Shown here: one piece after another, positions 16,946 through 30,426 of the stretch
How the letters are laid out: every line of letters starts with the position of its first letter
How positions within the stretch are numbered: the first letter of the stretch is position 1
Source of the DNA: Luteibacter sp. dw_328
Lineage (GTDB): Bacteria > Pseudomonadota > Gammaproteobacteria > Xanthomonadales > Rhodanobacteraceae
Length of the DNA: 64,000 nucleotides
Reading direction: 5' to 3'
Assembly: GCF_018449605.1 (NCBI RefSeq)
Contig: NZ_JAAVUW010000002.1
Span: forward strand, 186,001 to 250,000
The notes under the pieces: model-generated
What the model saw: the letters and a program-made list of their open reading frames with translations, nothing else
Told to the model about the DNA's origin: nothing
Database searches by the model: none
Made by a program: the position numbers and the translations under genes

Positions 16946-17113
16946 TCAGCCCGCGGTTTTCTTGGGGCCCTTCAAGGGCGTGCTGCGCGGCGTCTCCGGG
17001 AGAGGCGCGGTGCGCTTGTGCGAGTACACGTAGGAGATGAACGCGGCGGATGAACGATCCGGCGGCGGCGTGTCCACGGACTGGGTGACTGGTTTCTTGG
17101 GTGGCATGACCAT
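16946..17113 (-). CDS. Possible 55-residue basic hypothetical protein
   Basis: Minus-strand frame starting MVMPPKKPVTQSVDTPPPDR (ATG 17113; a second ATG at 17107) and ending PLKGPKKTAG. The product is basic, Pro- and Lys-rich, probably disordered. No strong ribosome site is visible and no family was recognised. The amino-acid make-up is plausible for a small real protein, and no other gene covers the 407-base gap 16896-17302. The rest of that gap (17114-17302) shows nothing I can name. Confidence 0.3.
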   Translation of the reverse strand: MVMPPKKPVTQSVDTPPPDRSSAAFISYVYSHKRTAPLPETPRSTPLKGPKKTAG

Positions 17114-17302
17114 CGTCTGAGTTGGGCAGGACGAGCCCGGCTGCGAAAGCCGGGGGTGAATCCGGCCAAACGAAGCCCGGGTCATCCAACATGCGCTTTC
17201 AGTTGTTAGTTGGGTGTAACGTGGTGGGCCCGGCAGTGCGACAGCCGTAACACCGACGTAACCCACCACGTGGCAAACGTGGTCTGACAGCGAGGGCACG
17301 TC

Positions 17303-17485
17303 ATGGAAACACAGAAACAGGTCGTCGGCCCGGCCGACGCCACCAAGATCGACCTTGAGCTGCGAACCGATATGAACTACTGGACGCGCGTGCTTGGCGT
17401 ATCCGAGACCTCCCTGCGCAATGCCGTGCTTCGCGTGGGTGGCCAGTCGTCCGACGTGCGCGCCGAACTGCGACGTCGTCGCTGA
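17303..17485 (+). CDS. DUF3606-type small protein
   Basis: A 60-residue protein with the DUF3606 core: MNYWTRVLGVSETSLRNAVLRVG, in which an aromatic pair YW, then GVS..L..AV..VG, makes a small helical unit, followed by a basic tail AELRRRR. The family is common in proteobacteria, often plasmid- or stress-linked, with no known function. GAGGG sits 8 bases before the ATG. The stop overlaps the start of the next gene by one base (TGATG), so the two should be co-translated. Confidence 0.75.
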   Translation: METQKQVVGPADATKIDLELRTDMNYWTRVLGVSETSLRNAVLRVGGQSSDVRAELRRRR

Positions 17486-17709
17486 TGGACGGTGTCGTTC
17501 GCCCGTTGCGCGTGTTTGTTTTCTATCCGTCGATGAATCTTCATACGTGGACGGTGCTGTTGCCTGGCGCGACGAAGCACGTGTTCCAGACCGAGGGCAC
17601 GGCGGTGGAGTTCGCACTGACGCGCGCGTCGGCCATGAAGGGCAAGGGTCGCGCTGTCGAGGTGCTGCGCGAGCGCGTATCTGGTGGCTGGGTGCTCGTG
17701 CCGTTCTGA
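17485..17709 (+). CDS. Small hypothetical protein coupled to the DUF3606 gene
   Basis: A 74-residue protein, MDGVVRPLRVFVFYPSMNLHTWTVLLPG. The middle and end (WTVLLPGATKHVFQTEGTAVEFALTRA, then GGWVLVPF) recall DUF2188-like folds: a beta hairpin, a helix carrying an A-x-E-x-A pattern, and a final strand. That resemblance is loose. The ATG overlaps the DUF3606 stop by one base, indicating translational coupling. No export signal; probably cytoplasmic. It ends 2 bases before the stop of the convergent acyltransferase gene. Confidence 0.6.
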   Translation: MDGVVRPLRVFVFYPSMNLHTWTVLLPGATKHVFQTEGTAVEFALTRASAMKGKGRAVEVLRERVSGGWVLVPF

Positions 17710-17710
17710 G

Positions 17711-18751
17711 TCAGGCAGCGGCAGGCCGCCGAAGGATCGACCGTCCCAGCATCCCACGGGCACTCATGATGGGGCGCTCGACGTACCGGTGGGCCACGGC
17801 ACCGATCGTTATCGCGAGAATGATCGCCACCAGGACGCTGACAAGGCTATTGGGGCGGAGCTCGGCTGCCCTGGTCACGAAATACCAGTGGAACAGATAG
17901 ATCGGATAGCTCCAGCGTCCGACGTTCGTCATCGCGCGTGACGCCAGCAGGCGGCCCATCGGCCCCGTGTCATCCAGGTTCACGAGCATGAAAACAGCCC
18001 AGAGCGCGCCCAGTGGAACGAATTTGTTGCCCAGCCAATAGTGCGGTGCGTCGGGGTAGTACATCGCCCGGAAGTAGTCGGTCATCGCGACGATAGCGGC
18101 GATGACCAGAACGCTGATGGCGACGGAGGGCATGCGGACGGCACGCGCCTTGATCGAAGGATAGATAACCGCACACAGCATGCCGATCAGGAAACAGGGA
18201 ATGTACCAACGCAGTTCCGGCGAGTTTTCCGTCGTTCCCGTGAAGGGAAACAGGACGGACGACACGACCCCGCATGCAAGCACGAACGTCGCCGACCACA
18301 TCGGTCCGAACCGGTTGTAAATCGCGATCGTAGGGACGGCCAGGGGGAAGAGCAGGACGTAGAACTTCAGCTCGACGGGAACGGTCCAGAGATGGGCGTA
18401 CCCCTTGGTAAGCGTCAAGGCATTCGTGACGTCCGCCCAAGTCGTAATGGTCGTCGTGCCGAAGAAGAAATAGAAGACGACCGCGATGACGAACAGCGGG
18501 ACGATACGCAGGCAGCGGGCCAGTACGTAGTCAGCGAGCGACCTCATGGTCGTGCCCCGCAGGAACAGATGATTGGTGAGCAGGAAGGCACTCAGGACGA
18601 AAAACAGCCAGACGCCGACTTTTCCCGTTCCCGGAAGATAAGGACGAGCACCAATAAAAATGCCATTGACGGAGTGAACCAGCAGTACAACGAGGCAGGC
18701 CAGGCCGCGTATGCCGTCGGCATTACGAAAATAGGCGCTTCGTTCCGTCAT
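17711..18751 (-). CDS. Acyltransferase-3 family membrane protein
   Basis: A 346-residue integral membrane protein of the acyltransferase-3 family (O-acetylation of surface sugars, peptidoglycan or lipids). The N-terminus shows the family signature RNADGIRGLACLVVLLVHS, with the catalytic-type His in the first helix. About ten hydrophobic segments follow, including GVWLFFVLSAFLLTNH, and the C-terminus ends in a basic stretch (GRSILRRPAAA). ATG 18751 was chosen because GGAAAG lies 8 to 9 bases before it and the family motif begins directly after. ATG 18766 is in frame as an alternative; frames further upstream run into the tRNA-Asn terminator. Acceptor unknown; no glycan cluster adjoins. Confidence 0.85.
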   Translation of the reverse strand: MTERSAYFRNADGIRGLACLVVLLVHSVNGIFIGARPYLPGTGKVGVWLFFVLSAFLLTNHLFLRGTTMRSLADYVLARCLRIVPLFVIAVVFYFFFGTTTITTWADVTNALTLTKGYAHLWTVPVELKFYVLLFPLAVPTIAIYNRFGPMWSATFVLACGVVSSVLFPFTGTTENSPELRWYIPCFLIGMLCAVIYPSIKARAVRMPSVAISVLVIAAIVAMTDYFRAMYYPDAPHYWLGNKFVPLGALWAVFMLVNLDDTGPMGRLLASRAMTNVGRWSYPIYLFHWYFVTRAAELRPNSLVSVLVAIILAITIGAVAHRYVERPIMSARGMLGRSILRRPAAA

Positions 18752-18792
18752 TTGCCCGCTTTCCATGATGATCGAGACGATCATGGTACACA

Positions 18793-18822
18793 AAGAAAAA
18801 GGGCCTGCATCGCTGCAGACCC
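18793..18822 (-). terminator. Intrinsic terminator of tRNA-Asn
   Basis: On the minus strand a 9-bp stem (18822-18814 with 18809-18801, GGGTCTGCA/TGCAGGCCC, one wobble) is followed by TTTTTCTTT (18800-18793). It lies just downstream of tRNA-Asn and before the acyltransferase gene. Confidence 0.85.
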
Positions 18823-18832
18823 TTTCAAAACC

Positions 18833-18909
18833 TGGCGCCCGAAGTTGGACTCGAACCAACGACCCCCTGATTAACAGTCAAGTGCTCTAACCGGCTGAGC
18901 TATTCGGGC
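18833..18909 (-). tRNA. tRNA-Asn (GTT)
   Basis: A cloverleaf folds cleanly on the minus strand: acceptor GCCCGAA/TTCGGGC, D-arm GCTC/GAGC, anticodon stem CTTGA/TCAGG with loop CTGTTAA (anticodon GTT), T-arm GTTGG/CCAAC with loop TTCGAGT. The 3' CCA is encoded. Confidence 0.97.
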
Positions 18910-18921
18910 GGGGAGCTGCGT

Positions 18922-18950
18922 ATTGTCTTTATGTGAGGTGGGGCTGTCAA
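18922..18950 (-). promoter_or_regulatory. Sigma-70-type promoter of tRNA-Asn
   Basis: On the minus strand a consensus -35 TTGACA (18950-18945) is followed after 17 bases by GACAAT (18927-18922). Transcription would begin a few bases before the tRNA 5' end at 18909. Confidence 0.65.
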
Positions 18951-18957
18951 GCGGGTC

Positions 18958-19494
18958 TCAGCGATTTCGTGAATGACGTGCGCCGCAGGCGCGTGCGACA
19001 TCGGCTGAGGCTGGTTCGGCGTGGCTATGGCCGTCTTTGGCGATAACGACGGTCAACGTCGTGGAGGCCTTGCCGCGCAGGCACAGCGCCAGCGTCTGGT
19101 TGCCGGGAGGAGCCTCCTTGCCTGGCCGCAGGAACGCGATGTCGGTGCGGAGGCCGATGGAGATGGCGGTCAATCGTGAGTCCAGCGCGTCTTCGACGGC
19201 GAGGACATCGCCCGTTGCCCGGTCCCGACTGATCCAGCCCACCCCCCAGTCGGTGCGTCCGCTGCATGTCCGCCCGTTTTCGCTGGGGCAGACCAGCGTG
19301 CCCCTCTCTCGATACAGCGCCGCCGTACGGGTGTGTTGAAGGGTGTCCATCAGGGCGTTCATGGCCGCCCGGAGCCGATGGCGCGCGATCGCCTCGGAAA
19401 GCGGCGGTGCGGCGACGGCCGCCATGACGGCTGCGATGGTCAGGACCATGAGGAGTTCGAGCCACGTGAAACCGCGGCAAGGCGGGCGGGGCAT
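18958..19494 (-). CDS. GspH/FimT-type minor pseudopilin
   Basis: A 178-residue protein with a type IV prepilin leader. The short basic N-terminus MPRPPCRG is followed by [21 protein letters not shown]; cleavage after Gly would put the conserved Glu at position 5. The hydrophobic helix continues into the charged [27 protein letters not shown], typical of GspH/FimT. The C-terminal half holds three cysteines ([16 protein letters not shown]) that may form disulfides. It is an orphan: no other pilus or secretion genes lie in the window. Role: minor pilin priming of type IV pili or a type II secretion pseudopilus, dependent on a prepilin peptidase elsewhere. Confidence 0.85.
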
Positions 19495-21657: not shown

Positions 21658-22047
21658 CTACCTGAAGGTGAAGTGCCGATGCCCGAGATAGCTCGTGAAG
21701 ATCGGCACGACGACACCGATGCCATGCGCTATCAGTTCGTCGTGCTCGCGAATGCCCAGGCCGGGCAAGACGAAACGGGCGAAGACCAGGCTTACCGCGA
21801 CCGTCTGGACGACGGCCGCCAGGTTGACGAGCAGGAAGCGGAACGCCTGCACGCGCCAGGTGAGCACGCCCGGCTCGAAGACGAACAGGCGATTGAGCGC
21901 AAACGCCGTCGCCATGCCGACGCAGTAGGCGAATACGATCGCAGCGACGTACGGTAGCCAGTGACTGAAAACCAGGCGAGAGCCCACGTTGGCTGCCGCC
22001 GCGATACCGCCGGCGATGACGAACTTCGCGAAGCGGGCGCTGATCAT
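21658..22047 (-). CDS. GtrA family protein, last gene of the arabinose-lipid-like operon
   Basis: A 129-residue inner-membrane protein with four hydrophobic helices, matching GtrA: FAKFVIAGGIAAAANVGSRL at the start and FTSYLGHRHFTFR at the end are typical. GtrA proteins are thought to help move polyprenyl-phosphate-linked sugars across the inner membrane, as in Shigella phage glucosylation. In mycobacteria a GtrA-like protein (Rv3789) acts next to the DprE1/DprE2 genes. Its ATG overlaps the preceding gene's stop (ATGA). Ending the operon that appears to make polyprenyl-phosphate-arabinose, it is the candidate flippase or flippase helper. Confidence 0.85.
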   Translation of the reverse strand: MISARFAKFVIAGGIAAAANVGSRLVFSHWLPYVAAIVFAYCVGMATAFALNRLFVFEPGVLTWRVQAFRFLLVNLAAVVQTVAVSLVFARFVLPGLGIREHDELIAHGIGVVVPIFTSYLGHRHFTFR

Positions 22048-24365
22048 CGTGTGCCGCCAACCGGCGGGGGCTCGTCCATCGCATCGAGGCGAGTACGCAG
22101 GCTCCAGCAGAGCGCGGCCATGACGAACAATCCAGCCAGGGCCAGGGTGCTCACGTGCGTCGCCCGGACGACGGGTTCGATGATCCAGACGACGCAGCCG
22201 TAGACCGCCGAACCGACCAAGGCGACCTTCGCCAGCCAGTGGCGCCACAGCAACAGGGCCGTGAACAGGCCGATGTACATTTCCAGGATGGATTGATAGG
22301 CCTGGTGATGGATGATGAAGCAGTCCAGCGTCAGCGCCAGGTCGATCGCGACGGCCATCGCGCCGATGGCGAATAGCCCGGCTGCCACCCGCCACTGGCG
22401 GATCGCCCTGTCCGCCGCTCCAAGCAGCCTCGGTACGAAGACCGCCCCGAGTAACGGCAGCGCGCCCGCGAGAGCGAAACGAAACGACGGGAGCAGGTAC
22501 AGGAAATCGGTGATCCGCAACGCTCCGTATCCCGACAGCACGGGCGTGGCCATTTCGCCGAACCCACACATGCTCATCCGTCCGAACATCAGCGTCTCGA
22601 ATCCGACCCACTTGATGTGCCACCAGCTGGCCAGGTCGAGCTTCGAGTAGGTGCGCATGATGGTGTCGAGCAGGCCGATGTCGTCCTCACCAAAACCGAA
22701 GGTTCCGGCAAAGGCGAACTTCACCAGCGCATTGCCGGGGGGCTGGACCATCTGCTGCCAGAGACTCCAGGGCGCCAGGATGCCGATGCCGACGACAGCA
22801 CCCGCGATGAGGCCAGGAATGCGCGGGATGCCACGCACGCAGACCAGCCAGAGCAGCATGGCGATGACGCCGAAGGCGGTGCCTCCATGCGAAAGCAGGG
22901 CAAAGGCCGACAGCGCCGCGCAGATGGCGATGGCCGCCGCCGAGGGTCGGCTGCGCACGAGCGAAAGCTGCGCGTCGGTTTGCATCACCGTGAGCAGGGC
23001 CAGCAGGCCGAAGGCCCCACCGAGAAGCTTGGGCCAGGTGTAGAGCGAGTTGAAGATCGCGAACGACGTGAGCGTCACGAGCGCCACCAGCGTGACGATC
23101 TGTTTGGTCGTCAGCCGAAGTTTGCGGCCTGCGACGACCACGGCGGGGATCCAGACGGTGTTGAGGATCATCCCGAACATCTGCTGGAGCGCAGCCGTCA
23201 TGTACAGGCCATCTTCGCGGAAGAAGAAGATCTGCGCCGACGTACGCAGCATGGCCAGGAGGCCGTAGCTCAAGGGCGGGCGGTCCGATACCTTCCACGC
23301 GCCGAATGGTGAAGGATTCAGGTCCTTTCCATTGAACAGGTACTCAGCGACGATCATCGGAAGCTGGTTATCCGTGGACCAGCGTACCGGTGTGAAACGC
23401 GCATTCATGGCCCATGGTCCGGCGCCGTTTTGCACCGTAGCGGCGAGGAACAGCAGGAAGGTTGCCGCCAGCAACCACAGAGCCAGGGGGAGTTTCCACG
23501 CATCCCAACTCTGTACCAGCGCTCCCGGCGCCCGACCCTCATGGCGCGCGCGGCGATGTACATGACGCAGGCTGAGCAAGGCGGCGATGCTGACGACGCC
23601 GGATACCAGCGCGCCGTAGGGAGCGGAAAAGAAGAACAGGAAGAACAATCCCATTCCCAGGATGCCGAAGCCGAGGAAGCCACCCGCGACCGGATCGCTC
23701 GTGGGGCTGATCCGGCGCAGGAGTGCACCGCCTGCCAGCATGACGCCCGCGACGATCGCGAACGCCAGCGCGAAGGGAGCGAGCAGCCCCAGGATGCCCG
23801 CCTTCAGGTACGACGTGGCGGAGACGGAGAAAGGCGTTCCCACCGAGAGGAATTGGGTGTGGCTCGTGGAGGTGCCGACCAGCTGCACCGGACCCTTGCA
23901 CCAGCGTTTGGGTACGTAGAGAAGCGCTTCGCTCCACTGATTGCCGACGCGGGCGGTGGCAACGGCCAACTGTCGACGGGAAGCGACGCACTCCAGGTTC
24001 AGCGATATACCGGAATCGCCGGCAAAACCGCTATGGGGCACCAGGAGAAACCGGGGCGCCTTGAACGCGGCCGAACGAATTTCTCCCGGCGCGGCGAGGT
24101 TTTCAGAGGTCCAGGACCGCCAGTAGGTCACGTCCTTCGACTGGAGGACGCTTTCGCGCAGCTCGTCGGCCTGTGGACGCACGTTCTGGAAGAAGCCGGT
24201 CGTGGTCTCCCAGCCGTTCGCTGCGATCAAGGCCCTGGCGGGTTTCTCGTGAAGCACACAAACCAGCACGCTGATCGCGAGCGCGACCAGCACGATGATC
24301 CGGGTGGCACGAAAAAGCCATGTCGGGCCGTTCCCCGTCGCCGCGGTATTTACCGGCAACGTCAC
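22044..24365 (-). CDS. Large multi-pass membrane protein, candidate GT-C-type sugar transferase
   Basis: A 773-residue protein I do not recognise by family. It begins with GTG inside the stop codon of the upstream gene (GTGA). The N-terminus has one membrane helix (IIVLVALAISVLVCVL). A soluble domain of about 165 residues, probably periplasmic, follows, with two cysteines (LNLECVASRR, KRWCKG). The rest is about eleven to thirteen hydrophobic helices with short polar loops. Such a topology and its place after lipid-sugar synthesis genes suit a GT-C glycosyltransferase that uses a polyprenyl-phosphate sugar on the outer face of the inner membrane. A clear catalytic DD/DE loop motif could not be assigned, so the activity is inference from context and size. 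Confidence 0.55.
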   Translation of the reverse strand: MTLPVNTAATGNGPTWLFRATRIIVLVALAISVLVCVLHEKPARALIAANGWETTTGFFQNVRPQADELRESVLQSKDVTYWRSWTSENLAAPGEIRSAAFKAPRFLLVPHSGFAGDSGISLNLECVASRRQLAVATARVGNQWSEALLYVPKRWCKGPVQLVGTSTSHTQFLSVGTPFSVSATSYLKAGILGLLAPFALAFAIVAGVMLAGGALLRRISPTSDPVAGGFLGFGILGMGLFFLFFFSAPYGALVSGVVSIAALLSLRHVHRRARHEGRAPGALVQSWDAWKLPLALWLLAATFLLFLAATVQNGAGPWAMNARFTPVRWSTDNQLPMIVAEYLFNGKDLNPSPFGAWKVSDRPPLSYGLLAMLRTSAQIFFFREDGLYMTAALQQMFGMILNTVWIPAVVVAGRKLRLTTKQIVTLVALVTLTSFAIFNSLYTWPKLLGGAFGLLALLTVMQTDAQLSLVRSRPSAAAIAICAALSAFALLSHGGTAFGVIAMLLWLVCVRGIPRIPGLIAGAVVGIGILAPWSLWQQMVQPPGNALVKFAFAGTFGFGEDDIGLLDTIMRTYSKLDLASWWHIKWVGFETLMFGRMSMCGFGEMATPVLSGYGALRITDFLYLLPSFRFALAGALPLLGAVFVPRLLGAADRAIRQWRVAAGLFAIGAMAVAIDLALTLDCFIIHHQAYQSILEMYIGLFTALLLWRHWLAKVALVGSAVYGCVVWIIEPVVRATHVSTLALAGLFVMAALCWSLRTRLDAMDEPPPVGGTR

Positions 24366-25660
24366 GCTGCACTCTCCGAAGCCAGCGCGGCAAGGCGCGT
24401 GCCGACCACGATGCTCTCGTTGATCGACCGATCCTCGGGGTAGTAGTACGACGTGTCGGCCATGAAGAAACCGGCGATCGGCGTCGCCATCGAAGGCAGC
24501 ATGTCGTAGAACCCGGGAGGGCACACCGTCTGGGCGAACTCGTACCGATGGCAATGGGTGGCCAGGACGCGGTCGCGGGTGAAGGCGGGGTTGAGCCGTG
24601 AAAGGTAGCCGAGCACTTCCTCGATCAGCTCATCGTTGCCCAGCTTCCACTTGGGGTGCGTCTTGGGCATGTAGAACGGTGCATAAAGGATGGATGCGCC
24701 CGTGTCGTTGAGGTTGGAGTACTCGATGACACCAGGGATCGCGATGCCTGGATCGTTGATGTTCATCCAGAAGTTTTCGGTGAGCGGCTGGCTCATCTTG
24801 ACGATGACGCAGGCCACCGGAATGTTCGTGATCGCGTCGATGCGTTCGGCGAATGCTTTCGGCAGGTCGGGTACAAGACGGGGGACATACTGAATGGGCG
24901 CAGTCGAGACGACCACGTCGGCAGGCAGCTCCGCCCCGTCAACAACGATACCCTTTACGCGGCCGTTCTCGGTGACGACCCGGTCGATGCCCGAACTCAG
25001 GTGGATCCTGCCGCCACGATCGAGAATGACCTTCTCCATCGCGCGGAGTACGGTCTCCGAACCGCCTTCGAGGTAGCCCATGGTTTCCTGCATGAGGCTC
25101 TTGCGCGACAGCCCGACGCGTTTGATGCGCGTGCCGATCCATGCGGCGGAGAGCTGTTCGGTGTACTCGAAGAACTTTAGCTCGAAGAGGCTTTTCCAGA
25201 GGACATCGTAGGCACGCTTGCCCACCCATTTACGAATCCAGGTGGTCGCGCTGACCTTGTCCAGCGGGCGCCAGTCCTTGATTCCCTTGGTGACCATGAC
25301 GTGGAGCGCGTAGCGTGCCTTGCTGACGATGCCCAATCCATCGAATGCAAGCAAGGCGAACGGCGTGCCCCACTTGTACAGGCGGCCGTTGTAGTAGAAG
25401 CCCATTTTCGTGTCGGTCCAGCGGAGCGTGTGCGACAGCTTCAGCTCGTCCAGGAGCGCGAACAACGGAAAGTCCGTCTTGCAGATGAAATGGTAGTAGC
25501 GCTCGATGGCGAGCCCGTCGAAGTCGAACGCAGCCGACATGCCGCCGATGCGATCGTCGCGCTCGTAAATGTCGACCTCATGGCCGCGCTTGAGGAGCTC
25601 CATGGCGGCCATAAGACCCATCGGGCCGGCACCGAGGACGGCGTAACGCTTGGAAGACAT
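24362..25660 (-). CDS. FAD/NAD(P)-dependent oxidoreductase, UDP-galactopyranose-mutase/amine-oxidase-like
   Basis: A 432-residue flavoprotein. The dinucleotide-binding motif is VLGAGPMGLMAAMELLKRGHEV at the N-terminus, followed by YERDDRIGGMSAAF, the GG-type FAD motif of the UGM, phytoene-desaturase and protoporphyrinogen-oxidase group. The C-terminal FAD motif is FFMADTSYYYPEDRSINESIVVG. GGAG lies 8 to 10 bases before ATG 25660. It is the fifth gene of the seven-gene minus-strand operon. A role in changing a sugar ring or oxidising a lipid-linked sugar is plausible. Substrate is open; the UGM-specific active-site residues could not be checked by eye. Confidence 0.7.
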   Translation of the reverse strand: MSSKRYAVLGAGPMGLMAAMELLKRGHEVDIYERDDRIGGMSAAFDFDGLAIERYYHFICKTDFPLFALLDELKLSHTLRWTDTKMGFYYNGRLYKWGTPFALLAFDGLGIVSKARYALHVMVTKGIKDWRPLDKVSATTWIRKWVGKRAYDVLWKSLFELKFFEYTEQLSAAWIGTRIKRVGLSRKSLMQETMGYLEGGSETVLRAMEKVILDRGGRIHLSSGIDRVVTENGRVKGIVVDGAELPADVVVSTAPIQYVPRLVPDLPKAFAERIDAITNIPVACVIVKMSQPLTENFWMNINDPGIAIPGVIEYSNLNDTGASILYAPFYMPKTHPKWKLGNDELIEEVLGYLSRLNPAFTRDRVLATHCHRYEFAQTVCPPGFYDMLPSMATPIAGFFMADTSYYYPEDRSINESIVVGTRLAALASESAA

Positions 25661-25675
25661 CACCAACTCCAACAA

Positions 25676-26644
25676 TCAACGTTTAAGAACAATGTGGCTG
25701 TAGCGCGGGTCGCAATAGCTTTCACGAACGGCTTCCTCGAACGGCGTCTGGCGGACACCGAACGTTTCAAAGGTGTCGATACCCTTGAAATCGTCACCCG
25801 CCGTCAGGGCGGCGAGCTGGGCGGCGGTGAACGGTGGCTTGCCACTGAATGCCCCGTACAGGCGCAGCAATGCATGAAACAGCCCGTAGGGAATGCGCAG
25901 GATCAGCGTGTGCAGTCCCTTGGCGCGTTTGATCGTCCGGATGATGTCGATATAGTCGATACGCGTATCGCCGACCACGTCGTAGATCGTCCCTTGTGGC
26001 TGGTTTTCGATGCAACGAACGATGCATCGGCAGAAGTCACGCTCGTAGAGCGGCTGGCGCATGTACTTGCCGTCGCCCGGGATCGGAAAAACCGGGGTTT
26101 TCGCCATGAACCGCGAGAGCCAGCCGAAGTGCTTGGGATCGAACCAGCCGAACATCAGGGTCGGCCGCAGCACGCAGTGAGGCGTGTCGCCGGCGACGAC
26201 AAGCGCCTCCTGGTCCTTCTTGGTGTTGGTGTAGTCGTCGTTCGCCACCGAGACCACGACCGAGGAGCTGACGTGCACGAGATAAGGCACCTCGTTTGCC
26301 CGGATCGCCGCCAGTACCAGTCGCGTGGCTTCCACGTTATTCCGGACGAATTCGTCGCGAAACTTGCTGGTGATCTGAGCGTGGAGCTGAACAACGCACT
26401 GGGCGCCTGCAAATGCGCCGGTCCAGTCGCCGGATACAGCGAGGTCCGCCTCGATGGCGGTCACGTCCGGGTGAAGCTCGCGCAGGATGCCGAGGTTGTA
26501 GGGGTGCTTGTCGATGGCGACCAGGTTCGAATAGCCCTGGCTCTTCAGTTCGACAATCAGGTTCTGCCCGACCAGGCCCGCGGCGCCGGTGATGACGATG
26601 CGGGCATCCTTCGCGATGGGGTGTTTGGCTGGCAACGTGGTCAC
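25676..26644 (-). CDS. NAD-dependent epimerase/dehydratase family protein
   Basis: A 322-residue extended SDR. The Rossmann loop is VITGAAGLVGQNLIVEL near residue 18. The catalytic pattern is VHVSSSVVVS followed by YTNTKKDQE (Tyr-x3-Lys), as in sugar-nucleotide epimerases and 3-beta-HSD-like enzymes. It starts with GTG overlapping the upstream SDR stop by 4 bases (GTGA). It lies in the middle of the operon that carries DprE1/DprE2-like genes. It may prepare or modify a nucleotide- or lipid-linked sugar; reductase or decarboxylase activity is equally possible. Confidence 0.75.
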   Translation of the reverse strand: MTTLPAKHPIAKDARIVITGAAGLVGQNLIVELKSQGYSNLVAIDKHPYNLGILRELHPDVTAIEADLAVSGDWTGAFAGAQCVVQLHAQITSKFRDEFVRNNVEATRLVLAAIRANEVPYLVHVSSSVVVSVANDDYTNTKKDQEALVVAGDTPHCVLRPTLMFGWFDPKHFGWLSRFMAKTPVFPIPGDGKYMRQPLYERDFCRCIVRCIENQPQGTIYDVVGDTRIDYIDIIRTIKRAKGLHTLILRIPYGLFHALLRLYGAFSGKPPFTAAQLAALTAGDDFKGIDTFETFGVRQTPFEEAVRESYCDPRYSHIVLKR

Positions 26645-27378
26645 AGCTTCAGCCGGCGAAAGATGAATTCCGGGATGTGGCGGATCACGAACATGATCGC
26701 CCACCAGAAGCGGGGCAGGTATGCCTCGCCCGCGCGCCGGTCGATCGCCCGCTCGATGCCTGCGGCGATGGCGTCCGGCGTCGCCCACAGCGCACCTTTC
26801 TTGAAGGCGGCCGTCATGGGGGTATCGACGAAGCCCGGCTTGATCGTGAGCACATTGACGCCATCCCGTCCCAGGCGTTGGCGGAGCCCGCTGAGGAACG
26901 TCGTCACGGCCGCTTTCGCTGCGCCGTAGACGTAGTTGCTCTGCCTGCCACGGTCGCCGGCAACGGACGAGATGACGGCGATGGTTCCCGCACGACGCGA
27001 CAACAGGTGGGGCACGACGGCCGTTACGAAGGCGATCGTCGAGGTGCCGTTGGTGGCGAACTCGCGTAGGGTCACCTGGACCGAGGCTTCGCACGCCGGT
27101 TGGTCGGGAAGCGTCCCGTGTGCCACCAGGACAATGTCGATCTCGCCAAGCGCGGTGATGGCCTGCTCGATAGCGCTGGCGTGCGCGTCGACATCGTTCA
27201 TGTCGAGAACGCCAGTGGTGACATCGGCCGCGCCGCGCACGCGCAGGTCATCGGCGATGTCCTTCAGCCTTGCCACGTTCCGGCCGAGCAGGTGCAGACG
27301 CGAACCGCTTGCGGCGTACAGCCGTGCGGTCGCCTCGGCGATCGCCGAGGTTGCGCCGGCAATGAGGATTTTTTGCAT
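26641..27378 (-). CDS. DprE2-like short-chain dehydrogenase
   Basis: A 245-residue classical SDR: ILIAGATSAIAEATARLYA at the N-terminus binds NAD(P)H, VAHGTLP replaces NNAG, and VYGAAKAAVTTFLSGL holds the Tyr-x3-Lys pair. The C-terminal tail FWWAIMFVIRHIPEFIFRRLKL is hydrophobic and basic and probably touches the membrane, as expected for an enzyme acting on a polyprenyl-linked sugar. DprE2 of mycobacteria reduces the 2-keto intermediate made by DprE1 to give decaprenyl-phosphoryl-arabinose. Only 2 bases separate it from the DprE1-like gene. Assignment rests on this pairing plus SDR motifs. Confidence 0.75.
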   Translation of the reverse strand: MQKILIAGATSAIAEATARLYAASGSRLHLLGRNVARLKDIADDLRVRGAADVTTGVLDMNDVDAHASAIEQAITALGEIDIVLVAHGTLPDQPACEASVQVTLREFATNGTSTIAFVTAVVPHLLSRRAGTIAVISSVAGDRGRQSNYVYGAAKAAVTTFLSGLRQRLGRDGVNVLTIKPGFVDTPMTAAFKKGALWATPDAIAAGIERAIDRRAGEAYLPRFWWAIMFVIRHIPEFIFRRLKL

Positions 27379-27380
27379 GG

Positions 27381-28685
27381 TCAGCTCTCCACTCGTCGCC
27401 AGAAGCTGGACGAAAAGCGTGGGTCGATGTATCGGCTGAATGCTTCCCACTGGGGGAAGTACTGGCGAAAGCGAGTGCCGGACATCCGGGCATCCTTTGC
27501 GGGATAGACGGCGCCGCCGGCCTCCGCGACAACGTCGTCCAGTCGATTCAGCAGATCGAGTGTGGTGGGGCCCCGGAAGGGGAAATCGAGCGCCAGCGTG
27601 GTGCCGGGGCGGGGAAACGAAAGCATGCCTGGGGACAGCTGCTCGCCGAACTGTTTGAGCACGGCCAGAAACGATCCGCCGCCCGCGGCTGCAATGATCC
27701 GTACCAGGGTCGCCATGGCGTCCATGGCCGCGCCGGGAGGGACGACACACTGGTACTGCAGGAAGCCGCGCGGCCCGTACAGTCGGTTCCATCCCCCGAT
27801 GGCATCCAGTGGGTAGAAGAACGGCTCGTAGTGGGTGACTGCGTGGGCGACTTTGCCGTGTTGGCGGTGGTAGTAGAACTGGTTGAATGCGCGCAGGGTA
27901 AGCGGGCCGATCATCGACACGGGCGGCGTGAGGGGGACGCTCAATCGCCGCGTGGCGGGAGTGGGTCGCGCTGAAGGGCGCGATGGCGCGTGATTCGCAC
28001 GGCTGAACAGGCCACGTCCCAGCGACGCGCCGGTGGCCGCACAATCGATCCAGGCCACCGTGTATTCGTAGTCTGCTTCGGATCCCGCAGAGAGCGCGAA
28101 AAACTCGGAAAGCTCGCCAAAGCGATGGCTCTCGGTAACCATCCACGGGCCCGCGATCCGGCGAAGCTGGAGGGTGGCGTGCGTAACGAGGCCCGTCAGG
28201 CCGAGGCCGCCGATGGTGGCGGCAAACCAGTCCGCGTTCTCGTCCGCAGTGCAGCGCATCCGGCTGCCGTCGCTGCGGAGGAGCTCGAATGCCCGGACAT
28301 GGTGGCCGAAGGTTCCCGAGCGGTGGTGATTCTTGCCGTGCACGTCGTTGGCGATGGCACCGCCCACGGTGACAAATCGCGTCCCCGGGGTCACCGGCAG
28401 GAACCAGCCCTGCGGCACGGCGAGGTCGAGGATGTCCGCAAGCAGGGTGCCTGCTTCACAGGTGAGTTCGCCGGTTGCCGGATCGAACGCAATAAAGCGA
28501 TCGAGCCCGCGTGTATGCAACAGCACGCCGCCGTCATTGAGGCAGCTATCGCCGTAACTGCGGCCGTTGCCATAAGGCAGGTAGGATGCGTCGCCCGGCG
28601 GGAGCGGTTGGTGGCGGTCGGTGACCCGCACCACGCGCGCCGTGGTACGCGGATACCGCCCCCAGGAGTCGGCGGGGCTGTCCAT
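27381..28685 (-). CDS. DprE1-like FAD-binding oxidoreductase
   Basis: A 434-residue flavoenzyme of the VAO/DprE1 type (M. tuberculosis DprE1 461). The PP-loop is YGNGRSYGD near residue 40. The FAD block TVGGAIANDVHGKNHH near residue 110 matches the mycobacterial enzyme closely, and YPAKDARMS near residue 397 holds the lysine equivalent to Lys418. DprE1 oxidises the 2-OH of decaprenyl-phosphoryl-ribose. The residue aligned with Cys387, the site attacked by benzothiazinone drugs, is Ala here (TLALDFP, Ala365). The ATG overlaps the HAD-UbiA stop by one base (TGATG). Confidence 0.82.
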   Translation of the reverse strand: MDSPADSWGRYPRTTARVVRVTDRHQPLPPGDASYLPYGNGRSYGDSCLNDGGVLLHTRGLDRFIAFDPATGELTCEAGTLLADILDLAVPQGWFLPVTPGTRFVTVGGAIANDVHGKNHHRSGTFGHHVRAFELLRSDGSRMRCTADENADWFAATIGGLGLTGLVTHATLQLRRIAGPWMVTESHRFGELSEFFALSAGSEADYEYTVAWIDCAATGASLGRGLFSRANHAPSRPSARPTPATRRLSVPLTPPVSMIGPLTLRAFNQFYYHRQHGKVAHAVTHYEPFFYPLDAIGGWNRLYGPRGFLQYQCVVPPGAAMDAMATLVRIIAAAGGGSFLAVLKQFGEQLSPGMLSFPRPGTTLALDFPFRGPTTLDLLNRLDDVVAEAGGAVYPAKDARMSGTRFRQYFPQWEAFSRYIDPRFSSSFWRRVES

Positions 28686-30136
28686 CAGATCGCCGATGCC
28701 ACGATGCCGCCTGCCGCGAGGAGAATGAAGCGGCTCACCTTGTCCATCACTGCGAACACGACCGGGTCGTCATGCATCACCCCGCGATGGGCCAGCGCCC
28801 AGGTGCGGCTGATCCAGTAGAGCAGGGGAGGGCACAGCAGCCACAAGCGGTGCGGGTGGTGATAGAGCGACTGGCTGGCCGTGCTGTCGACATAAAGCGC
28901 AAGCACGAGGACCGCGAGGTAACCACTCGATCCACCCAGTGACTGGATAAGCGGAATGTCTTCGACATCGTAGCCCCGTCCGTTCGCCTTCACCTTCCCG
29001 ATGCGCTGCATGGTCAGCAGTTCGGTGTATCGCTTCACCATGGCCAGGCTCAGAAAGATGAACATGGAGAAGGCGAGCAGCCAGAATGATGGCTTGCTCT
29101 GGATGGCGGCGGCGCCGGCGATGATTCGCGTTGTGTACAGCGTCGCAAGCACGACTACATCCAGCATCATGACCCGCTTGAGCCGGATGGAATATGCGGT
29201 GGTCAGGACGTAGTAGCCGACCATCACCGCCATGAACGTCGGCGAGACTAACCAGGCCAGTGCGAGACCGGCCATCAGCGTTATCGCTGCCACGACCGGA
29301 CCTGCCAGCAGCGGAAGCGTGCCGGAGGCGAACGGCCGGTGGCGTTTTCGATGGTGGTGGCGATCGGCCGGAAGGTCGAGGAGGTCGTTGGTCAGGTAGA
29401 CGCTGGAGGCGCAGAGGCCGAAACACAGGAACGCCAGCAGTGACCGGACGACAGCATCGACTTCGAAAATCCGGTGCGCCACCAGCACGGGCAGGAAGAC
29501 GAGGATGTTCTTGATCCACTGGTGAATGCGAAGCGCCTTCATCCAGGTGCGCAGACCGGCCCGAGCGGTTACGAAGCGGCGCTCGACGTTCGTGTGAGCC
29601 GCCGCCCGTCTGGATAGGGTCGTGCCGCTCTCCACGACGATGGCTGCGTGGGCGTGTTTCCACACCTGAAGATCGACGGTGGCGTTACCCACGTAATCGA
29701 AACCGCGCTCGCCAAAGCGCTCCACGAGGACGGCGCCCTTTCGCGTTCCTGCCAGATTTCGCTCGCCGTCACTCGCGAGCACCTCGTCGAAGACGCCGAC
29801 ATGCTCCGCCACTCGCTCGGCAAGGACGCGGTCCGATGCCGTGCACAGGATGATCTTCCGGTCGGCGCCCTGTTCCCGCAGCCATGCGATCAATGGTTCG
29901 TTATAGGGGAGGGACGAGGCGTCCAGGGTGACCCGCCGGGCGATCTCATGCTTCAGATGCGCCTTGCCACGCAGAAGCCAGGCGAGCATGGCGAAGACCA
30001 TCCACGGCTTGCTGGCGATCAGGCTCAGCGCCGACTCGATGAGCAGATCCGAATGGATCAACGTCCCGTCCAGATCGACGCAGACAGGCAGAGGGGATCC
30101 AACCGTTGTCCGGTTCAAGTCGAAAGCGTTGGCCAA
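28685..30136 (-). CDS. HAD-UbiA fusion, candidate polyprenyl-phosphate phosphoribosyltransferase plus phosphatase
   Basis: A 483-residue fusion. Residues 1-180 are a HAD-type hydrolase: VDLDGTL (nucleophile Asp21, Asp23), CTASD (motif II) and FDYVGNATVDLQVW as motif IV with Asn in place of the first Asp. Residues 195-483 are a UbiA-type prenyltransferase with eight to nine helices; NDLLDLPADRHHHRKRHRP (Asn250, Asp251, Asp254, Asp258) binds the Mg-diphosphate, and YSIRLKRVMMLD is the second motif. Similar basic motifs occur in mycobacterial Rv3806c, which makes decaprenyl-phosphoryl-5-phosphoribose. The attached HAD part could remove the 5-phosphate, giving the DprE1 substrate. The start is taken as TTG 30136, with AGGAG 8 bases upstream; no ATG lies before the HAD motif. 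Confidence 0.8.
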   Translation of the reverse strand: MANAFDLNRTTVGSPLPVCVDLDGTLIHSDLLIESALSLIASKPWMVFAMLAWLLRGKAHLKHEIARRVTLDASSLPYNEPLIAWLREQGADRKIILCTASDRVLAERVAEHVGVFDEVLASDGERNLAGTRKGAVLVERFGERGFDYVGNATVDLQVWKHAHAAIVVESGTTLSRRAAAHTNVERRFVTARAGLRTWMKALRIHQWIKNILVFLPVLVAHRIFEVDAVVRSLLAFLCFGLCASSVYLTNDLLDLPADRHHHRKRHRPFASGTLPLLAGPVVAAITLMAGLALAWLVSPTFMAVMVGYYVLTTAYSIRLKRVMMLDVVVLATLYTTRIIAGAAAIQSKPSFWLLAFSMFIFLSLAMVKRYTELLTMQRIGKVKANGRGYDVEDIPLIQSLGGSSGYLAVLVLALYVDSTASQSLYHHPHRLWLLCPPLLYWISRTWALAHRGVMHDDPVVFAVMDKVSRFILLAAGGIVASAI

Positions 30137-30310
30137 ACCGATGCTCCTGCAGTCCCTGTGAGCTCCTGGTATCGCGCGTGCTAACGGCGGCGACCTGAGC
30201 GGGCCGTATATTACTACGAGAGGTTGCCGGGAACCGGTCAGCCATGTGACAAGAGCGTCCCTGGCCAGCCCCATGGCGGGCCGTGACTGAAAAAAATCTG
30301 CCGCGACCTC

Positions 30311-30351: not shown

Positions 30352-30426
30352 GGGCGGTTAGCTCAGCGGTAGAGCACTACCTTGACATGGTAGGGGTCAC
30401 AAGTTCGATCCTTGTACCGCCCACCA
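30352..30426 (+). tRNA. tRNA-Val (GAC)
   Basis: Cloverleaf with acceptor GGGCGGT/ACCGCCC, D-arm GCTC/GAGC, anticodon stem CTACC/GGTAG with loop TTGACAT (anticodon GAC), and T-arm ACAAG/CTTGT. The 3' CCA is encoded. Confidence 0.97.

What the first reader, a model, noticed from the sequence alone, without database searches (positions are those of the whole stretch)
21658..30136. Seven-gene overlapping operon that looks like a Gram-negative polyprenyl-phosphoryl-arabinose pathway
HAD-UbiA, DprE1-like, DprE2-like SDR, epimerase, UGM-like flavoprotein, a 12-helix-type membrane protein and GtrA follow one another on the minus strand. Four junctions overlap by 1 to 4 bases (GTGA, ATGA or TGATG), one gap is 2 bases and one is 15. 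In mycobacteria the UbiA-type phosphoribosyltransferase, DprE1/DprE2 and a GtrA-like protein make and move decaprenyl-phosphoryl-D-arabinose for cell-wall arabinan. Related sets are known for pilin arabinosylation in some Pseudomonas and Nod-factor arabinosylation in Azorhizobium. A stand-alone operon with its own candidate transferase in this kind of organism suggests an undescribed D-arabinofuranose-bearing surface structure.
Basis: partly seen in the sequence, partly recalled or inferred. Interest (0 to 1): 0.78.

Follow-up and report, generated by a model that had tools for sequence, protein, structure and literature searches.

The report
Mobile cassette for lipid-linked pentose
A soil-type bacterium carries a compact set of genes, gained from elsewhere, that should build a rare five-carbon sugar on a lipid carrier and attach it outside the cell; the first steps match a published pathway to D-arabinose, but two extra enzymes that travel with it suggest that the finished sugar is something else, possibly L-xylose.

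Summary
The seven-gene operon is real and its coordinates and junctions check out. PPPRS (HAD-UbiA), DprE1 and DprE2 match mycobacterial enzymes with solved structures and keep the catalytic residues. The general pathway (polyprenyl-phosphate pentofuranose, flippase, GT-C transferase) was published in 2024 (PMC11127046), which also mentions unexplained Xanthomonas systems with several epimerases. The route to polyprenyl-P-D-arabinofuranose is therefore not new.

What I add: (1) PPPRS-DprE1-DprE2-epimerase-flavoprotein-GtrA recurs as a six-gene cassette in Gamma-, Beta- and Alphaproteobacteria. (2) The epimerase goes with DprE1: 16 of 16 epimerase genomes in a 200-genome order sample have it; 0 of 168 DprE1-less genomes have the epimerase. 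(3) In 40 of 64 module loci etf genes lie nearby (20 also rhamnose genes, an O-antigen context); two Lysobacter loci have pilin genes instead. (4) In this Luteibacter it is a clean 8.6-kb insertion between uvrB and tRNA-Val. (5) The large membrane protein is one of several unrelated ones in a variable slot.

Two extra conserved enzymes make plain D-Araf an unlikely end product. My boldest reading: Araf to Arap (flavoprotein), then C4 epimerisation to L-xylopyranose, known as a partial side branch in Xanthomonas and Ralstonia O-antigens.

The parts
28685..30136 (-). PPPRS: N-terminal HAD phosphatase fused to UbiA-type polyprenyl-phosphate phosphoribosyltransferase (TTG start; possible ATG at 30274)
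   Evidence: NF006088 673 bits over cutoff 351; UbiA and HAD Pfam hits; PDB 8j8j Mtb DPPRS E=1.2e-29 with the NDxxDxxxD motif and the KRYxE residues aligned; DxDGT motif seen in the sequence
27381..28685 (-). DprE1-like FAD oxidase (C2 oxidation of polyprenyl-P-ribofuranose)
   Evidence: PDB DprE1 E=2.9e-78 over 8-433; HGKNHH and YxAKD conserved, position of Mtb Cys387 is Ala (the residue number is recalled); NF053785 365.6 bits, below the curated cutoff of 500
26641..27378 (-). DprE2-like SDR reductase
   Evidence: Best PDB hit is Mtb DprE2, E=9e-27, with Ser/Tyr/Lys aligned; NF005489 over its cutoff, NF053786 (DprE2) 174.8 bits below cutoff 250
25676..26644 (-). EPI: extended SDR of nucleotide-sugar epimerase/dehydratase type; proposed epimerase acting after DprE1/DprE2
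   Evidence: PF01370 E=5e-20; TGAAGLVGQN, Y138 and K142 invariant in 14 of 14 aligned; aligns over 261 columns with RmlB; no solved structure at E<=1e-15; goes with DprE1
24362..25660 (-). FAD flavoprotein, amine-oxidase superfamily (NF005560/PRK07233); proposed sugar ring isomerase or other tailoring enzyme
   Evidence: PF01593 E=2e-36, NF005560 522.7 bits over cutoff 252; orthologue at 50% identity or more in 16 of 16 EPI genomes of the order sample
22044..24365 (-). Large polytopic membrane protein (773 aa), candidate GT-C glycosyltransferase in a variable slot
   Evidence: No significant Pfam, NCBIfam or PDB match; 14 hydrophobic segments by a crude hydropathy count; one of several unrelated large membrane families found in or near the module
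21658..22047 (-). GtrA-family protein, candidate flippase for the lipid-linked sugar
   Evidence: PF04138 E=2.8e-16; no NCBIfam hit; GtrA found in 69 of 80 EPI loci
21659..30285 (.). Approximate extent of the inserted cassette between uvrB and tRNA-Val
   Evidence: Locus L182 aligns up to window 21658 and again from 30286, with 3 bases between the two blocks in L182; 11 of 11 same-genus loci read look empty there
30352..30426 (+). tRNA-Val(GAC), right-hand border of the insertion
   Evidence: Read by eye from the sequence; ARAGORN finds tRNA-Val(gac) 75-120 bp after uvrB in 10 of 11 relatives, the eleventh ends at a contig edge
19623..21644 (+). uvrB, left-hand border of the insertion
   Evidence: Pfam UvrB domains

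Best explanation
It is a horizontally acquired operon for an extracytoplasmic pentosylation system. Supported by homology: the UbiA domain puts ribose-5-phosphate from PRPP on polyprenyl phosphate, the fused HAD domain removes the 5-phosphate, and DprE1/DprE2 invert C2 to give polyprenyl-P-D-arabinofuranose. Inferred: the epimerase and the flavoprotein then convert that lipid-linked arabinofuranose into a further pentose (leading candidate L-xylopyranose), GtrA moves it across the inner membrane, and the large membrane protein, a swappable GT-C-type transferase, adds it to an acceptor, most often an O-antigen-type glycan, perhaps pilin in some lineages. The confidence given is for the pathway class plus 'further converted beyond plain Araf', not for the named sugar or acceptor.
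For: Homology with conserved catalytic residues. Published mechanism for the same PRP-PPPRS architecture, with DprE1/E2 homologues reported in Araf systems (PMC11127046). Six-gene cassette in 13 of 19 PPPRS loci read, in 7 of the 8 EPI genomes of a 398-genome phylum sample (the eighth is cut by a contig start) and in the 3 plasmids read of 7 hit. EPI goes with DprE1: 16 of 16 against 0 of 168 (Fisher P=3.6e-15, not corrected for kinship); 12 of 13 genomes whose EPI was not seen beside DprE1 carry a DprE1 match elsewhere, one of these with a stop inside. Pairwise distances of PPPRS, DprE1, DprE2 and EPI correlate at 0.76-0.92 over 59 loci, not corrected for species kinship. etf motifs in 40 of 64 module loci, rml motifs in 20 of these 40; rmlA, rmlB and gmd by HMM in X. 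phaseoli. Unrelated membrane proteins swap near the module.
Against: No biochemistry. The membrane protein has no detectable GT-C family relation, and 12 of 64 module loci showed no large polytopic ORF nearby by my criterion. NCBI's DprE1 and DprE2 models score below their curated cutoffs. 24 of 64 module loci show no etf motif, and 2 of those have type IV pilin motifs beside the module. In this strain the operon is not in the presumed O-antigen locus, which lies on another contig, so the acceptor is inferred only from relatives. EPI or the flavoprotein could act on a different substrate.
Confidence: 0.7

Rival explanations
1. The operon makes and transfers plain D-arabinofuranose. EPI and the flavoprotein act elsewhere, for example on the acceptor or as a parallel sugar route.
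For: DprE1/DprE2 are complete, and Araf systems with DprE1/E2 homologues are reported.
Against: EPI and the flavoprotein sit inside the same cassette in three classes, and EPI was not found in any DprE1-less genome of the order sample.
Confidence: 0.13
2. EPI is a C3 epimerase like Citrobacter ORF13, so C2 plus C3 inversion gives lyxofuranose (or xylofuranose, if DprE is bypassed). The flavoprotein has another role.
For: ORF13 is a GalE-like SDR that turns Ribf into Xylf; EPI is an extended SDR with a YxxxK pair.
Against: PMC11127046 knows no Lyxf in any solved glycan; a C3 epimerase alone leaves the conserved flavoprotein unexplained. I had no ORF13 sequence, so I could not compare it with EPI.
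Confidence: 0.15
3. The flavoprotein works on the polyprenyl chain (a phytoene-desaturase-like redox enzyme), marking the carrier lipid for this pathway, while EPI alone sets the sugar.
For: Profile comparison favours CrtI (97.8% probability, 248 columns) over UGM (80.7%, 70 columns); a phytoene dehydrogenase is its best PDB profile hit.
Against: Its usual neighbour and co-inherited partner is a sugar epimerase. UGM belongs to the same flavoprotein superfamily (recalled) and is among its PDB hits (1i8t, E=6.7e-9).
Confidence: 0.15
4. The acceptor is a type IV pilin or another protein, as for TfpW of Pseudomonas.
For: Pilin arabinosylation uses a related PPPRS. In two Lysobacter loci (L108, L114) three prepilin motifs and a pilC-like motif lie beside the module. 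A GspH-type pseudopilin gene lies at 18958-19494 in the window, just beyond uvrB.
Against: Prepilin motifs were found in 2 of 64 module loci, against etf motifs in 40 and rml motifs in 20. The window's pseudopilin gene lies outside the inserted cassette.
Confidence: 0.18

Closest known systems
Three-component pentofuranose systems, Citrobacter youngae O1/O2 ORF12-15 (PMC11127046)
   Same: HAD-phosphatase fused N-terminally to a UbiA-type PPPRS; lipid-linked pentose; an SDR epimerase (in O2); small membrane flippase candidate; large membrane transferase or candidate
   Different: Here DprE1/DprE2 plus an extra extended SDR and a conserved flavoprotein; GtrA instead of the small transporter ORF14; the membrane protein has no family match
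Mycobacterial decaprenyl-phosphoryl-arabinose pathway (Rv3806c, Rv3807c, DprE1, DprE2, Rv3789)
   Same: PPPRS, DprE1 and DprE2 homologues with catalytic residues conserved; GtrA-type flippase candidate (that Rv3789 is GtrA-like is recalled; PMC11127046 calls it SMR-family)
   Different: The 5-phosphatase is a fused HAD domain; EPI and flavoprotein added; compact mobile cassette; Gram-negative host
Xanthomonas systems with multiple epimerases or GT-Cs mentioned in PMC11127046 (discussion read; its supplementary figure not seen)
   Same: Probably the same cassette (inference): six-gene modules in 11 named Xanthomonas species among the 80 loci kept
   Different: There only noted as unexplained; here its gene content, dependence and spread are measured
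Pilin arabinosylation in Pseudomonas (TfpW) and Azorhizobium NoeC/H/O/P (names from the finding and recall; of these only PMC11127046's remarks on the Pseudomonas system were read)
   Same: Lipid-linked Araf built from a UbiA-type PPPRS
   Different: No sequence comparison with TfpW or Noe proteins could be made; extra enzymes here

Membership tests
Three-component pentofuranose glycosylation system (PMC11127046) | PPPRS with a phosphoribose phosphatase | tested here: met
   HAD+UbiA fusion, DPPRS best structure hit, motif residues aligned
Three-component pentofuranose glycosylation system (PMC11127046) | Small membrane flippase | tested here: inconclusive
   GtrA family E=2.8e-16; transport not testable; the prototype uses a different small transporter
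Three-component pentofuranose glycosylation system (PMC11127046) | GT-C fold transferase (GT136 in the prototype) | tested here: inconclusive
   Large polytopic protein without family match; GT136 itself not compared; no fold prediction was obtained
DprE1/DprE2 epimerase pair | Both subunits homologous with catalytic residues | tested here: met
   E=2.9e-78 and E=9e-27 to the Mtb structures; NCBIfam scores below curated cutoffs
UDP-galactopyranose mutase (PF03275) | GLF domain | tested here: not met
   No PF03275 hit for P0005 or any of the 36 members of A4 at E<=0.01; hhalign to UGM covers only 70 columns of the nucleotide-binding part; no PF03275 hit in the own genome at E<=1e-30
Extended SDR sugar epimerase/dehydratase | TGxxGxxG and YxxxK motifs | tested here: met
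   TGAAGLVG and Y138-K142 invariant in 14 of 14; 261-column alignment with RmlB
L-xylose (L-Xylp) biosynthesis | Strains with the cassette carry L-Xyl in a surface glycan | not tested
   L-Xyl reported for R. solanacearum (PMC10450222 passages) and X. campestris pv. begoniae (title in a reference list); presence of the cassette in those strains was not checked

The most novel reading that the evidence does not exclude
The six-gene cassette is a biosynthetic route to L-xylose in bacterial surface glycans. The C4 epimer of D-arabinose is L-xylose (stereochemistry, own knowledge), but C4 is tied up in the furanose ring. A ring isomerase (the flavoprotein) would turn polyprenyl-P-Araf into Arap, and the GalE/RmlB-like EPI would then invert C4 to give polyprenyl-P-L-Xylp for periplasmic side-chain addition. 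This uses exactly the two extra conserved enzymes. It fits the non-stoichiometric, pyranosidic beta-L-Xyl side branch of Ralstonia OPS and the 'partially L-xylosylated L-rhamnan' of a Xanthomonas, as well as the cassette's place beside L-rhamnose genes in many relatives.
Probability: 0.3. Interest if true: 0.82.

Novelty: new variant of a known kind. Interest (0 to 1): 0.56.

Why it matters
If right, it extends the DprE1/DprE2 lipid-linked pentose route beyond arabinofuranose to a further pentose, and gives a testable origin for L-xylose on the LPS of plant-associated bacteria. In the listings of six full-text searches naming L-xylose I saw no title or abstract start that proposes a route; the library holds open-licence papers only and most listed papers were not opened. 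It would add a flavoenzyme and an SDR acting on polyprenyl-phospho-sugars, useful for glycoengineering. It also shows the pathway moving as one compact cassette with a swappable transferase slot, a plausible source of surface-antigen variation.

Tried and rejected
UGM membership of the flavoprotein: rejected on sequence. Plain Araf as sole product: disfavoured by the DprE1-linked EPI and the flavoprotein. A pathway unique to this strain: rejected. Base composition as a sign of foreign origin: not informative (operon GC 0.636, window 0.646). Direct test in Ralstonia: not reached. Paralogues of the flavoprotein (29-31% identity) in three same-genus genomes and in G190 lie in other etf-side loci without EPI and gave no clue to function. 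P0006 in plasmids: no match in 72,556 records. PPPRS in phages: one partial hit. EPI against solved structures: none at E<=1e-15.

Thresholds differ between searches (E<=1e-30 for PPPRS, 1e-60 for EPI, DprE1 and the flavoprotein). The Fisher P and the distance correlations ignore relatedness. My gene calls in fetched loci are mechanical ORFs; the etf, rml and pilin counts are short-motif matches, not HMM calls. The hydropathy count is crude.
Full report
OBSERVATION. The first gene most likely starts at TTG 30136 behind AGGAGC. The window lies in a 5.05-Mb genome in 21 contigs.

PARTS. The HAD-UbiA protein matches NF006088 (673 bits, cutoff 351) and, by sequence search of solved structures, M. 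tuberculosis DPPRS (E=1.2e-29), with the NDxxDxxxD motif and the KRYxE residues aligned. The residues tested in Citrobacter ORF15 are in PMC11127046. The N-terminal HAD motif DxDGT is present. DprE1 (E=2.9e-78) and DprE2 (best PDB hit, E=9e-27) keep HGKNHH, YxAKD and Ser/Tyr/Lys; NCBI's own DprE1 and DprE2 models score below their strict cutoffs. EPI is an extended SDR with invariant TGAAGLVGQN and Y138xxxK142 in 14 of 14 sequences; it aligns with RmlB over 261 columns and has no solved relative at E<=1e-15. The flavoprotein is NF005560/PF01593. All 36 members of A4 match PF01593 and none PF03275. Profile comparison is closer to phytoene desaturase than to UGM (comparison alignments of only 4 UGM and 2 CrtI sequences). 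The 773-aa membrane protein has no significant family match. GtrA is PF04138.

CASSETTE. Of 19 PPPRS loci fetched in the order, 13 hold PPPRS, DprE1, DprE2, EPI, flavoprotein and GtrA (in L054 the GtrA gene is on the other strand), 1 shows only the first three, and 5 PPPRS alone. In 398 genomes across the phylum, 8 have EPI; 7 of these show the whole module and the eighth is cut by a contig start. Seven plasmids have EPI; the three read (Burkholderia, Agrobacterium, Rhodobacteraceae) show the six genes in the same order.

DEPENDENCE. In a 200-genome sample of the order, PPPRS occurs in 41 (E<=1e-30), DprE1 in 32, EPI in 16 and the flavoprotein in 20 (E<=1e-60), 16 of them at 50% identity or more. 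All 16 EPI genomes have DprE1, PPPRS and that flavoprotein (one flavoprotein, in G096, with a stop inside); none of 168 DprE1-less genomes has EPI. Of 15 loci where EPI was not seen beside DprE1 (mostly Thiotrichaceae, some on cut contigs), 13 genomes were held; 12 of them carry a DprE1 match elsewhere, one with a stop inside, and G208 has none. Thus EPI and the flavoprotein look downstream of DprE1, not the reverse. Over 59 loci with all six genes, distances of PPPRS, DprE1, DprE2 and EPI correlate at 0.76-0.92, the flavoprotein with these at 0.62-0.73 and GtrA with the others at 0.37-0.43 (species kinship not removed).

CONTEXT. In X. phaseoli the cassette has rmlA and rmlB (HMM) and etfBA on one side and gmd on the other. 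In X. axonopodis, X. arboricola and S. maltophilia rmlA/rmlB-type genes lie beside it by sequence (rmlC of the S. maltophilia locus by HMM). A motif count over the 64 loci with five or more module genes finds etfB-type motifs in 40, rml-type motifs in 20 (each of these also with etf), neither in 24, and prepilin motifs in 2 of those 24. Recall: the xanthomonad O-antigen locus is bordered by etfA. The two prepilin loci are Lysobacter (L108, L114), each with three pilin-type motifs and a pilC-like motif; there the acceptor may well be pilin, which counts against a single O-antigen reading. In the window's own genome the etf locus is on contig C19 and holds gmd and an export-type ABC ATPase (best hits teichoic-acid and galactan exporters, below cutoffs); reading its ORF starts I saw no cassette gene other than a GtrA-like one there. 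The cassette sits instead between uvrB and tRNA-Val. In 11 of 11 same-genus loci read (of 12 other genomes searched) the two flanks are adjacent (tRNA-Val seen in 10; L191 ends at a contig edge), and the L182 alignment breaks at 21658 and resumes at 30286.

SLOT. At least seven clusters of large membrane proteins, unrelated by blastp at 1e-8, occur in or near the module (clusters 2, 3, 6, 7, 9, 11, 13). The window's own is found in 3 of 200 order genomes including itself and in 11 of 80 EPI loci. 52 of 64 module loci have a large polytopic ORF by my criterion. None of seven representatives has a convincing Pfam match (one weak below-cutoff HupE hit). This is what a swappable transferase would look like, but it is not proof. 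A methyltransferase cluster occurs in 12 loci.

LITERATURE. PMC11127046 was read as outline, parts 1-4 of 8 of the text, and the epimerase and discussion sections. It establishes the three-component pathway, says that Araf systems carry DprE1/E2 homologues, knows no Lyxf, and notes unexplained Xanthomonas systems with several epimerases or GT-Cs. PMC10450222 (passages): R. solanacearum OPS has beta-L-Xyl as a minor branch, all residues pyranose. PMC5786101 (one passage, in the reference list): title of a paper on X. campestris pv. begoniae, a partially L-xylosylated L-rhamnan. PMC3071791 and PMC11976392 (find only) gave nothing of use.

MECHANISM. Supported by homology: steps to polyprenyl-P-Araf. 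Inferred: conversion by EPI plus the flavoprotein, flipping, transfer. The named sugar L-Xylp is my boldest reading. It needs one ring isomerisation and one C4 inversion, which is what two extra enzymes could supply. Against it: the flavoprotein's sequence leans to CrtI, ORF13 shows that an SDR can act at C3, and no strain with known L-Xyl was checked for the cassette.

VERDICT. A real, conserved, mobile variant of a known pathway, with a specific open question about its product.

Noticed in passing
17711-18859, minus strand: Acyltransferase-3 family gene (PF01757) beyond uvrB and the GspH-type gene; could O-acetylate a glycan, but lies outside the inserted cassette.
   Followed up: no
L108 and L114 (Lysobacter), about 17100-19330: Three prepilin-type motifs per locus and a pilC-like motif beside the cassette, suggesting a pilin acceptor in that genus.
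   Followed up: partly
L082 11072-12252: In X. phaseoli ATCC 49119 the flavoprotein matches as two pieces in different ORFs, so it looks interrupted there; G096 also shows one stop inside.
   Followed up: no
L119, L126, L131, L132, L134: In Thiotrichaceae EPI and the flavoprotein stand with a methyltransferase-like gene and, in 4 of these 5 loci, a 113-115 aa EamA/SMR-like protein where others have GtrA (the EamA hit is below cutoff).
   Followed up: partly
L155-L158: Three other Luteibacter genomes and G190 without the cassette have a distant flavoprotein paralogue (29-31%) in glycan-type loci near etfBA.
   Followed up: partly
L164 581-8498: The own genome's etf-side locus holds gmd and an export-type ABC ATPase, suggesting an ABC-exported O-antigen.
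   Followed up: partly
phage record MT837543.1 (H8): A 6.6-kb human-faecal phage record encodes a partial UbiA/PPPRS-like stretch (30% identity over 41% of the query).
   Followed up: no
L064, L078, L095: Three Luteibacter cassettes carry a flavoprotein only 48-50% identical to the window's although EPI is 75-77%, as if that gene had been replaced.
   Followed up: no
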